Notes under the pieces: model-generated
Seen by the model: the letters and a program-made list of their open reading frames with translations, nothing else
Told to the model about the DNA's origin: nothing
Database searches by the model: none
Shown: one piece after another, positions 5,809 through 8,867 of the stretch
Numbering within the stretch: the stretch's first letter is position 1
Layout: every line of letters begins with the position of its first letter
Assembly (NCBI RefSeq): GCF_000970285.1
Contig: NZ_CP009516.1
Location: 4,567,036-4,631,035 of the forward strand
Origin: Methanosarcina horonobensis HB-1 = JCM 15518
GTDB taxonomy: Archaea > Halobacteriota > Methanosarcinia > Methanosarcinales > Methanosarcinaceae
Direction of reading: 5' to 3'
Length of the DNA: 64,000 nucleotides
Translations under genes and position numbers: made by a program

Positions 5809-7266
5809 TCATTTTGAGGAAAGTCTCTTCTGTGCAAGGATACCAATTAATGTGACAATAATTCCACTAATTACCGCAATAATAAATTCTATTATCGGAC
5901 TCTCTTCAGTAGTTTCTATAGCAGGATGCTCTACCAGTAGTGTCAAAGAAGATGATGTGCTGGGTCTAAATCTATTATCATTGTCTCTGTATCTTGCTAT
6001 TATTGAATGCGAGCCAACCGAAAGGGGAGAAATTGTTAAAATTGCCTGACCGGAACTTAAAGTCTCAGTTCCTATGGATGTGTTTCCCTCAATAAAAGTG
6101 ACTGTGCCTGAAGGCCTCTCTGTTCCCTGAGATGTTGTATTAACTGTAGCAGTAAGCGTTATTGGGTCTCTGGTTGAATAATGGTCGGGTGAAGAAGTTA
6201 AAGTGGTTATGGTTTCTATCCGGGATCCCGGAACAGAACAAATGAACTGACCTAAACCAGAGGGACACATTCCCACATCCACCTTATCTATAACGGTATT
6301 GGTTTTTGTGCTAATTACAGAAACAGTATTACTGCCGGAATTTGTCACATATACCTTTGTTCCATCCCTATTGACTGCGACTCCGCAAGGGGATGTTCCT
6401 ACAATTATTGTATCCGTAACATTGTTCGTGGCCGCATTAATCACAGAAACTGAACCGATAGGAGTATTATGGTTCGCCACGTATACCCATTTTTCATCCG
6501 GGGTAACTGCAATTCCGTGAGGATATCTTCCTACGCTTACATCGGCTATAACCTTGTTAGTTAAAGTATCAATTACAGAGACATTGTCACTATTCATGTT
6601 CGTTACATATACTTTTGTTCCGTTCTTGTTGACTGCAACTCCATAAGGAGCTTCTCCCACATTTATATTAACTGTAACATTATCTGTCGCCGTATCAATT
6701 ACAGAAACAGTATTATCGCCTCTGTTCGTCACATATACCCTTGATCCGTCAGGAGTGATTACAACTCCAAAGGGATCTTTTCCTGTATGTATATCAAGAA
6801 CACTGCTGGTTATCAGGTCAACTGCACGAACTTTTTCATTTAAAAATTTTGCCACATATAGTTTTTGTCCATACGGATAAACCGCAATTCCAGAAGGTTT
6901 ACCTGGTTTGCCTTCTTCTACATTCATGGGTGTAACCTCTTCGGTAACTGTGTCAATTATGGAAACAGTGCGTCCCGGAATTTCATCGTTACCGAAGTTA
7001 GTTACGTACACCTTTGTTCCATCAGGGCTTACTGCAACTCCCACAGGAACATTTCCTACAGTCACCGTGGAGACAACAGTGTTGGTTGTTGTATTAATTA
7101 CAGAAACAGTGTTACTTTTCTCATTTGGAACATATGCATATTCAGCAGACAGGTCATTCTGCGCAGTAACTGCGGACCCGGTAAGTGAAAAGACAATTAA
7201 AAGCGAGAGAAGAACTATTGAAACTAAAAGTAATGAATGTGCTCTGTTCCCCCCTTTCATCCTCAT
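5809..7266 (-). CDS. YVTN beta-propeller surface protein with Ig-like domain and C-terminal membrane anchor
   Basis: A 485-residue exported protein. Residues 1-35 form a signal segment (KGGNRAHSLLLVSIVLLSLL). Seven or so repeats of the YVTN type follow (AYVPNEKSNTVSVINTTTN, VYVTNRGDNTVSVIDTATD and variants, each about 42 residues), building a propeller to about residue 345. Residues about 360-445 are a bacterial-Ig-like module (TLTATVNTTSQG...PSGTVTFIEGN), and residues about 457-480 are a transmembrane helix with a short basic tail. In Methanosarcina such proteins are S-layer-associated or cell-surface adhesins. GGGAG lies 10 bases before the start. The IscB element ends only a few tens of bases upstream, so the native promoter may have been displaced. 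Confidence 0.85.
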   Translation of the reverse strand: MRMKGGNRAHSLLLVSIVLLSLLIVFSLTGSAVTAQNDLSAEYAYVPNEKSNTVSVINTTTNTVVSTVTVGNVPVGVAVSPDGTKVYVTNFGNDEIPGRTVSIIDTVTEEVTPMNVEEGKPGKPSGIAVYPYGQKLYVAKFLNEKVRAVDLITSSVLDIHTGKDPFGVVITPDGSRVYVTNRGDNTVSVIDTATDNVTVNINVGEAPYGVAVNKNGTKVYVTNMNSDNVSVIDTLTNKVIADVSVGRYPHGIAVTPDEKWVYVANHNTPIGSVSVINAATNNVTDTIIVGTSPCGVAVNRDGTKVYVTNSGSNTVSVISTKTNTVIDKVDVGMCPSGLGQFICSVPGSRIETITTLTSSPDHYSTRDPITLTATVNTTSQGTERPSGTVTFIEGNTSIGTETLSSGQAILTISPLSVGSHSIIARYRDNDNRFRPSTSSSLTLLVEHPAIETTEESPIIEFIIAVISGIIVTLIGILAQKRLSSK

Positions 7267-7278
7267 AAGCAGGAGACT

Positions 7279-8847
7279 CCCTCCTCGGAGGGTGCAGCCC
7301 TACAGGTGGGAGAGGAATGTGTCAACTCTACCGGGATTATTTTTCTGTTCAATTAGGGTAGTTGTCCTGGCCCTCAATCGTTCACAGTTTCGTTTTACAT
7401 TAACACTATTATGAATCTTATTTCCAAAAATGTCAGTTATAGCAAAATAGCCAGTAGATCTTTTACCTTTTACAATACCAGCTCCGTATTCAGTTTTAAT
7501 CAAATCGAATTTTCTTAACCCAAACAATTTACCAGTTGGAATCTTCTTTTCTGATCTTTTCCCGTTCTCTGCTGATAATCTCCTTTACTAACATGTTTTT
7601 TCAGGTAGAAAATATCTTCAAGTTCCACTTTTTGATCGTTACAGCATATTGAAACAGCATCGAAATAATGTGTTTTTGGAAGCTCTAACATTTGTTCTCT
7701 TTTGTATTTAGTTTCGTATCCAAAAGTTTCTATGAAATTCCAATCTGATTTCTTAATTTGGGATTTGATAATTCCAATTTCAGTTGCATGTTTTGTTTTC
7801 GATCTTTTTACGGATAGTTGAAACTCTCCTCTATGTAATGCATCATGACAGGTATTACATAGACAAATCAAGTTTTTAGGAGTATCCGTACCTTTCTGTG
7901 ATCTAAAAATAATGTGATGACAATGTAACTTAGGATCTTTTGATTTGCCTTTGCAATGCTGGCAAGTATGTTTGTCTCTATTAAGGATGTATGCCTTCAA
8001 ATTGTAGAACCCTTTTTGATCTCCATTTTGATGCTCAATACCTGAAACACTTGGATCTGTTATCTTATGAATATCAAAGGAAGCAAGTTCCACTCCCCAC
8101 TTTGTTACAGGCAGAATCGATTCAACAAACTTCTTTTCTCTGAAATGAGATTCAAGTTTGCTTCGAATAGAAGGTGGTATTCGTCCTTCTCTTAACGAAT
8201 TTCTTCTATTATCAAATCTTGCAGGTCTGTATCTGGTCTTTCTGCTTCTTCGAGTTCTCCTGTACATAGCTCTCTGTTTCATTTTTGCGGATACATCTTG
8301 TCTGATTTCAGCTTCAGATTGATACAATACTTTTCCATTTCCAACTGCAGCACAGCCTATTTTCTTGGAGCCAGAATCCATTCCTGCAACAACAGGTTGA
8401 GTATAACCCTTACTGTTATAAGTTAACTTAATAGTAAATGGAATTCTACTGACCACTTTTGCTTTACCTGCTTTAAGCAAAATTCTTGCTTTTGCAGGAT
8501 TAGTTGGCATCAGCGGTTTTTGATTTTTGTTAAGTACAAACACAAATATTTGTAATTCCTCCTATTTCTAGGGGTTATGCGTATCAAGTTTTGTGGAGTC
8601 AAAACCTGAATTCGGCTTCCTCTCGATCGGATGTTAGAAGGTTTAATGACACAGGCACCGTCCCTACCCTTCAGGACTTTTAACCTGTATCCTCAGAGCT
8701 TCAAACTGAGGCGACATTTGAAGGTAACTATAGATTCTTCCACATCGTCTACCAATTTTCTTTACTCCTATTGGTGATCTGGTCAACCAGGGCTATCTTT
8801 CAAGCTCATTCCTCGACCGCATCGGCGGGCAGGGAGGGGTAGTTGAC
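7279..8847 (-). mobile_element. IscB-type insertion element (IS200/IS605-like, no transposase visible)
   Basis: The element holds an iscB gene and its upstream structured RNA. Its right-hand end on the plus strand is marked by GTCAACTACCCC (minus strand, 8847 inward); the other end carries a related GTCAACTCTACC on the plus strand at 7321, giving imperfect terminal inverted similarity. A perfect hairpin CCCTCC-TC-GGAGGG (7279-7292) followed by a GGGTGCAGCCC mini-hairpin lies beyond it and may be the subterminal hairpin recognised by a Y1 transposase. No tnpA is encoded, so mobility would need a transposase in trans. Exact ends are inferred; the site lies immediately upstream of the YVTN gene. 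Confidence 0.6.
7300..8543 (-). CDS. iscB: IscB RNA-guided nuclease (RuvC + HNH), frameshifted near the C-terminus
   Basis: The frame from GTG at 8543 gives 342 residues with the full IscB layout: N-terminal PLMP/RRXRR segment (residues about 1-45), RuvC-I with Asp56 in GMDSGSKKIG, arginine-rich bridge helix (about 88-115), RuvC-II Glu152, an HNH domain (CxxC at about 194-197, HCHHI at about 207-211, later Asn224 and CNTCHDALH), and RuvC-III HYFDA with Asp295. The frame then ends at 7515, while the expected C-terminal sequence (KLFGLRKFDLIK ... STGYFAITDIFG ... NSVNVKRNC) continues one frame over to 7300. Adding one A in the A4 run at 7557-7560 restores a protein of about 414 residues. Nuclease residues are intact; the C-terminal target-recognition part is lost unless this is a sequence error or slippage. 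AGGAGG lies 14 bases before the GTG. Confidence 0.9.
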
Positions 8848-8867
8848 TTACATTTCACTCCTTAGAT
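8550..8867 (-). ncRNA. HEARO / omega RNA of the IscB element with predicted 5' guide
   Basis: This non-coding, relatively GC-rich stretch lies directly upstream of iscB, where HEARO RNAs reside. Visible structure on the minus strand: CTACCC near the 5' end (8837-8842) complements GGGTAG at 8664-8669; local hairpins CTGGT-N2-ACCAG (8779-8790), CCTCAG/CTGAGG (8691-8711), GTTTTG/CAAAAC (8588-8605) and CCTA-GAAA-TAGG (8561-8572). The last overlaps the AGGAGG ribosome site of iscB, so the RNA may also control translation. The scaffold starts with GTCAAC (8842-8847); by analogy with known IscB systems the flanking host bases 8848-8867 would be transcribed as the guide. Confidence 0.75.

What the first reader, a model, noticed from the sequence alone, without database searches (positions are those of the whole stretch)
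7300..8867. Archaeal IscB element with adjacent omega RNA and predictable guide
The window holds a RuvC/HNH nuclease of the IscB type (the ancestor group of Cas9) and, directly upstream, a structured GC-rich RNA region of the HEARO class. All catalytic residues (Asp56, Glu152, HNH histidines and Asn, Asp295) are present. IscB in a methanogen, inserted just before a surface-protein gene, offers an archaeal RNA-guided nuclease with a readable guide.
Basis: partly seen in the sequence, partly recalled or inferred. Interest (0 to 1): 0.8.

Follow-up and report, generated by a model that had tools for sequence, protein, structure and literature searches.

The report
Frameshifted archaeal IscB mobile element
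A methane-producing archaeon carries a small mobile element encoding a relative of Cas9 and its guide RNA, wedged exactly between a surface-protein gene's ribosome-binding site and its start codon; the element is of a known kind and this copy's nuclease gene is broken near its end.

Summary
The window contains a real HEARO (omega) RNA (8847-8611, minus; 92.7 bits, cut-off 83) followed by a real IscB gene (8543-7515, minus; 332 bits, cut-off 175). All named catalytic residues are in place.

The last ~100 residues (TAM-interacting domain) are lost from the main frame, so this copy alone is probably not a working DNA nuclease. An intact paralogue (83% protein identity, 94% omega-RNA identity) lies elsewhere in the genome and could serve it in trans.

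About 60 related Methanosarcina loci fix the anatomy. The element is 1,587 bp (8847-7261). The guide is the host DNA just upstream of the left end (AAGGAGTGAAATGTAA). The TAM is ATGAA, just downstream of the right end. Empty sites in relatives join guide to TAM without a gap. Here the TAM is the start codon of the surface-protein gene and the guide is its ribosome-binding site. Insertions at gene starts are over-represented (12 of 34 versus 39 of 505 ATGAA sites outside ORFs; p=1.6e-5).

The element has no transposase. Its ends resemble, in inverted polarity, those of TnpA-TnpB elements in the same genome. New member of a known kind.

The parts
8848..8863 (-). Predicted guide (16 nt, AAGGAGTGAAATGTAA): host DNA just outside the left end, holding the ribosome-binding site of the interrupted surface-protein gene
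   Evidence: HEARO model position 1 lies at the first base of the element, so host sequence is immediately 5'; distinct flanks in 41 family A copies; guide plus TAM contiguous in a relative's empty site. The 16-nt length is taken from OgeuIscB (PMC13180657, PMC9640706)
8611..8847 (-). Omega RNA (HEARO, RF02033) scaffold; its first bases GTCAACTACCCC are also the left end of the element
   Evidence: cmscan 92.7 bits, E 1.4e-17; 19 of 37 predicted pairs show a both-sided change in 21 relatives
7515..8543 (-). IscB, N-terminal 342-aa frame: PLMP, RuvC-I (D56), bridge helix, RuvC-II (E152), HNH (H209/H210), RuvC-III (D295)
   Evidence: NF040563 332 bits; Pfam RRXRR and HNH; residue positions
7563..7564 (-). 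Site of the one-base deletion that shifts the frame (ACAGGG in the nearest relative, ACGGG here)
   Evidence: nucleotide comparison with L118 and other relatives
7300..7560 (-). Out-of-frame remnant of the IscB C-terminus (TAM-interacting domain), still conserved
   Evidence: conserved C-terminal columns D348, G361, G366 all lie after the shift
7261..7329 (-). Right end of the element, GC-rich inverted repeats, ends CTGCTTATGAGG
   Evidence: common end in relatives L027, L117, L118 and in the 59-bp end-only copy L028
7256..7260 (-). TAM ATGAA, which is also the start codon (ATG AA.) of the host surface-protein gene
   Evidence: 41 of 41 family A insertions have ATGA here, 38 of 41 ATGAA; empty sites
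5809..7260 (-). Host gene: YVTN beta-propeller repeat surface protein with an Ig-like domain; its native start is 7260, an extra in-frame ATG at 7266 is supplied by the element
   Evidence: TIGR02276 261 bits, PF16640; start codon conserved in uninterrupted relatives

Best explanation
This is a 1,587-bp transposase-less IS200/IS605-type element of the IscB (ISC) kind. A TnpA Y1 transposase acting in trans inserted it precisely in front of an ATGAA site, without duplicating the target. Transcription entering from the host gene's own promoter would make an omega RNA whose 5' guide is the host 5' leader. An IscB protein loaded with that RNA would cut only the re-sealed empty site (guide followed by ATGAA) after excision, so that repair from a sister chromosome puts the element back. 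In this copy a single-base deletion has removed the TAM-interacting domain from the reading frame, so it is most likely a recently decayed copy that can act only through the intact paralogue at G000:C1:1693711-1694718. Shown here: RNA and protein identity, boundaries, guide and TAM, empty sites, frameshift, paralogue, similarity of the ends. Inferred: transcription, RNA-guided cutting, mobilisation by TnpA, trans-use of the paralogue.
For: HEARO and IscB family matches above curated cut-offs. Closest solved relatives are IscB/IsrB complexes, by sequence and by a modest-confidence model (mean pLDDT 61.6). Left end GTCAA(C/T)TACCC is constant in ~50 copies while flanks all differ. ATGA after the right end in 41 of 41 distinct family A insertions, ATGAA in 38; this fits the NWRRN class reported for OrufIscB (PMC13180657) and the NNRR TAM of OgeuIscB (PMC9640706). 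Joined-flank queries match relatives without a gap, for example the site of the Methanosarcina sp. DH2 copy in the window's own genome (97%, 303 of 303 bp), a Fic gene and a glycosyltransferase-like gene. The window's own site is uninterrupted in G013. dN/dS against the intact paralogue is 0.09/0.52, about 0.17. Own genome has three complete 1,840-bp TnpA-TnpB elements and about 20 TnpB elements whose right end is the reverse complement of the IscB left end at 18-19 of 20 bases.
Against: No RNA or activity data. The three complete TnpA-TnpB elements are flanked by TTTAAC, not TTCAT, so their TnpA may not be the true partner; G007, with 146 omega RNAs, has no TnpA found whose ends clearly match. 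The frameshift could be an assembly error. Right-end similarity to TnpA left ends is modest (local score 28 against a shuffle maximum of 23).
Confidence: 0.85

Rival explanations
1. The frameshift is a sequencing or assembly error and the window copy is an intact, active IscB.
For: Selection was purifying over the divergence from the paralogue, and the C-terminus is still conserved after the shift. There is only one lesion.
Against: Other damaged copies are common in the genus (stops or fragments). The genome is one closed-looking 5.02-Mb contig at 99.95% completeness, which suggests good data. The missing base is not simply within a homopolymer when compared with L118 (ACAGGG to ACGGG).
Confidence: 0.2
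2. The truncation is functional: a natural IscB without its TAM-interacting domain, redirected to single-stranded nucleic acid like the engineered R-IscB.
For: Removing this domain from OgeuIscB turns it into an exclusive single-strand binder (PMC12991159). The N-terminal frame keeps all catalytic residues.
Against: No other Methanosarcina copy was seen with this truncation point; most full-length copies have open frames of about 410-490 aa. The C-terminal remnant is not yet decayed, as it would be in a long-lived truncated form. The guide has the same sense as the host mRNA, so it could not pair with it (sequence orientation).
Confidence: 0.04
3. The full-length protein is still made by -1 frameshifting at G GGA AAA (7563-7557).
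For: The shifted sequence reads G GGA AAA in the zero frame, a shape used in -1 frameshifting (general knowledge); slipping back one base restores TGKRSEKKIPTGK exactly (sequence).
Against: No relative uses a shift here; the motif arises as a by-product of the deletion; no stimulatory structure was tested.
Confidence: 0.05
4. The nuclease belongs to TnpB or an unrelated HNH family.
For: TnpB elements with similar ends are abundant in the same genome.
Against: IscB equivalog match 332 bits with HNH inserted between RuvC-II and RuvC-III; the Cas9d model scores 27 bits against a cut-off of 375; best solved relatives are IscB.
Confidence: 0.01

Closest known systems
IscB / OMEGA systems (OgeuIscB, OrufIscB, TbaIscB)
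   Same: PLMP, RuvC-I/bridge helix/RuvC-II/HNH/RuvC-III/C-terminal domain order; 5' HEARO RNA; guide 5' of the scaffold; purine-rich 3' TAM of the NWRRN type
   Different: Archaeal; TAM inferred as ATGAA (from insertions, not assayed); the window copy is frameshifted before the TAM-interacting domain
IscB element of Methanosarcina sp. DH2 (L118/L057)
   Same: 78% identical protein, same ends and TAM; its insertion site is uninterrupted in the window's own genome
   Different: Intact reading frame; different insertion site and guide
IS605-type TnpA-TnpB elements in the same genome (L010-L012 and about 20 TnpB-only copies)
   Same: Ends similar in inverted polarity (IscB left end equals the reverse complement of the TnpB right end at 18-19 of 20 bases)
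   Different: Encode TnpA and/or TnpB; flanking target is TTTAAC, not TTCAT; guide at the 3' end of the RNA
IscB of Psychromonas aquimarina (L058), a bacterium
   Same: About 57-58% identical protein, the closest non-archaeal relative found
   Different: Bacterial; no HEARO match, but that contig starts inside the gene

Membership tests
IscB (guided_IscB, NF040563) | Match to the curated IscB model above cut-off | tested here: met
   332 bits, cut-off 175
IscB (guided_IscB, NF040563) | Split RuvC with inserted HNH and catalytic residues | tested here: met
   D56, E152, H209/H210, D295; Pfam RRXRR and HNH
IscB (guided_IscB, NF040563) | N-terminal PLMP domain | tested here: met
   NKNQKPLMPTNPAKARILLKAGKAKVV near the N-terminus
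IscB (guided_IscB, NF040563) | Complete C-terminal WED/TAM-interacting domain in frame | tested here: not met
   Frameshift near 7563/7564 removes it from the main frame, so this copy is a broken member; met by the paralogue L008/L027
Omega RNA / HEARO (RF02033) | Covariance-model match above gathering score, directly 5' of iscB | tested here: met
   92.7 bits, cut-off 83, full model
Omega RNA / HEARO (RF02033) | Structure conserved with covariation among relatives | tested here: met
   19 of 37 pairs with both-sided changes in 21 sequences; 13 relatives above gathering score
IS200/IS605-type mobile element | Fixed ends, no target duplication, fixed flanking target motif, empty sites | tested here: met
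IS200/IS605-type mobile element | Mobilised by a Y1 transposase | tested here: inconclusive
   No tnpA in the element; TnpA-TnpB elements with similar ends in the genome, but their target motif differs
OMEGA RNA-guided nuclease | Guide-dependent DNA cleavage | not testable with these tools
   Needs biochemistry
TnpB / Cas12-like | TnpB-type protein with no HNH and a 3' RNA | tested here: not met
   HNH present, RNA is 5'

The most novel reading that the evidence does not exclude
In Methanosarcina the IscB TAM (ATGAA) makes gene start codons natural docking sites. The element parks between the host ribosome-binding site and the start codon, so the host promoter makes the omega RNA with the host 5' leader as guide, and the element's right end supplies a new translation start that keeps the host gene alive. 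This would be a favoured low-cost insertion niche and not a by-product of the motif.
Probability: 0.25. Interest if true: 0.6.

Novelty: new member of a known kind. Interest (0 to 1): 0.38.

Why it matters
The window's copy is an ordinary, partly broken member of a known family. The genus around it is a useful natural experiment: one Methanosarcina genome (G007) carries 146 omega-RNA matches, at least 80 of them without a matching IscB, each copy examined having its own flank-derived guide. That makes target-site choice, omega-RNA use in trans and retention of elements testable in archaea of a genus that is cultured and genetically tractable (general knowledge). The link between TAM and start codon is a concrete prediction that can be checked with reporters.

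Tried and rejected
TnpB or unrelated HNH identity: rejected by family models and solved-structure matches. A second target for the guide in the same genome: none with up to 3 mismatches; only the element's own left junction is found. A conserved programmed frameshift: relatives are in frame. A matching TnpA in G007: none found by end motifs. Functional truncation aimed at host mRNA: the guide is same-sense, so it cannot pair. Start-codon siting as pure avoidance of genes: first estimated by hand as sufficient, then contradicted by a measured background. The first alignment of the two own-genome copies is void, because the loci were in opposite orientation. The 2016 ISC paper and one TnpB/IscB transposition paper are not held.

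Full report
Observation. On the minus strand Rfam HEARO (RF02033) matches 8847-8611 over its full length at 92.7 bits (gathering score 83, E 1.4e-17). Downstream, the ORF 8543-7515 matches the curated IscB model at 332 bits (cut-off 175) and Pfam RRXRR and HNH.

The reading frame stops at 342 aa, but the conserved C-terminus (KIPTGKLFGLRKFDLIKT...) continues in another frame. Compared with the nearest relative L118 (ACAGGGAAAAGATCAG) the window reads ACGGGAAAAGATCAG, a one-base loss at 7563/7564. Highly conserved C-terminal columns (D348, G361, G366, R363, F368, G375) all lie beyond the shift. In OgeuIscB the C-terminal TI domain reads the TAM (PMC9640706), so this copy alone probably cannot bind duplex targets. 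Divergence from the intact paralogue shows dN 0.09 and dS 0.52, so the lesion is young or an assembly error.

Family in the genome. The own genome (5.02 Mb, one contig) has six HEARO matches, four above the gathering score, and three IscB matches: the window copy, an intact 83% identical paralogue at 1693711-1694718, and an intact, distant (32%) copy at 3892869-3893810. The paralogue's omega RNA is 94% identical to the window's. The genus is Methanosarcina: the same-genus genome G020 and the record NZ_WJBI01000002.1 of Methanosarcina sp. DH2 share contig length and position.

Family in the genus and phylum. 9 of 31 genomes of the genus have a match to the window's IscB; G007 alone has about 63 and 146 HEARO matches, 143 or so above the gathering score. 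At least 80 of its omega RNAs therefore have no IscB match. Twenty such loci were read: they carry the usual left end, an omega RNA and, where traced by eye (L206, L207), an element only a few hundred bases long. In the phylum, 27 of 393 genomes match the IscB model. A tree separates family A (window), family B (own genome 3892869) and G007 copy L099, with a Psychromonas protein nearest to family A; the placement of the long branches is unsure.

Boundaries, guide and TAM. Across about 50 copies the left end is exactly GTCAA(C/T)TACCC and the preceding 20 bases differ between copies. After the right end (CTGCTGAGGTAAG, CTGCTGAGGGTTT or CTGCTTATGRGG) come ATGA in 41 of 41 distinct family A sites and ATGAA in 38; in family B GTGA in 10 of 10. 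By construction the right-end search required ATGA in most patterns, so the invariance of those four bases is partly imposed; the fifth base was not, and the unfiltered listing of G007 copies shows few exceptions (L093, and the hybrid-ended L080 and L091 with CTGAA). Queries made of the two flanks joined matched relatives without a gap: the DH2 copy's site in the window's own genome (303 of 303 positions, 97%), a Fic gene, a glycosyltransferase-like start and others. The window's site is uninterrupted in G013, where TAAGGGGTGCAACATAA runs directly into ATGAAAAGGGGGG; the G013 neighbourhood is shared but locally rearranged. The target bases therefore belong to the host, nothing is duplicated, and the guide and TAM are contiguous when the element is absent. 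ATGAA fits the NWRRN class (PMC13180657).

Position. The TAM of the window copy is the start codon (7260) of a YVTN beta-propeller protein, and the guide AAGGAGTGAAATGTAA is its ribosome-binding region. The element's own right end offers an extra in-frame ATG at 7266. Of 41 distinct family A insertions 12 lie exactly at the start of an ORF of at least 80 codons, 7 inside ORFs and 22 elsewhere. In 20 sampled stretches of G007 (400 kb) only 39 of 505 ATGAA sites outside ORFs are such starts, against 12 of 34 insertions (odds ratio 6.5, p=1.6e-5; G007 copies alone 6 of 23, p=0.009). ORFs were called mechanically, and the non-G007 copies were compared with a G007 background. Preferred targeting and preferred survival are not distinguished.

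Mobility. The element has no transposase. The own genome has 16 Y1 transposase matches. Three belong to complete 1,840-bp TnpA-TnpB elements whose right end is the reverse complement of GTGAACTACCCCTCCCTGCT, 18 of 20 bases like the IscB left end; about 20 further copies of that end occur, and those read belong to TnpB-sized elements. The IscB right end resembles their left end more weakly. They sit after TTTAAC, while IscB elements sit beside TTCAT (read on that strand), so a shared transposase is plausible but not shown.

Mechanism. The best-supported reading is a transposase-less IscB element whose guide is templated by its insertion site, so that the nuclease would cut the resealed donor site after excision and favour retention. 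This follows from the established behaviour of OMEGA systems (general knowledge) and from the anatomy shown; no step of cleavage or transposition was tested. Because of the frameshift, the window copy would depend on the paralogue.

Verdict. Confirmed IscB-HEARO element; new member of a known kind; this copy is probably non-functional on its own. The genus-wide expansion and the start-codon bias are the more interesting leads.

Noticed in passing
Genome G007 (L205-L224): A 4.1-Mb Methanosarcina genome has 146 HEARO matches but about 63 IscB matches, so at least 80 omega RNAs lack a detectable IscB; L206 is an element of only a few hundred bases.
   Followed up: partly
L028, G000:C1:4054075-4054139: A 59-bp element made only of the fused left and right ends of the window's IscB element, next to ATGAA: an end-only derivative.
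   Followed up: partly
L080 and L091 (G007): IscB of family A with family-B-like left end (GTCAACTACCCGCCACTAAAGTGGCAGGCA) and a different right end and TAM-like motif (CTGAA): apparent exchange of ends between families.
   Followed up: partly
L222 (G007:C1:757239-758639): An IscB-less omega-RNA element lies just upstream of a gene that reads like pyruvate kinase, with AGGAGGT shortly before its ATG.
   Followed up: no
L005 and L006 (own genome): Weak HEARO matches (29.8 bits) are the reverse complement of TnpB element right ends, showing the similarity of IscB and TnpB ends.
   Followed up: yes
L027 flanks (own genome, about 1693428 and 1695021): The intact paralogue is inserted within an inverted repeat (CAGGAAACCAT ... 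ATGGTTTCCTG).
   Followed up: no
L001 (own genome, 399085-399288): A strong HEARO match (143 bits) followed by a family B IscB broken into several frames.
   Followed up: no
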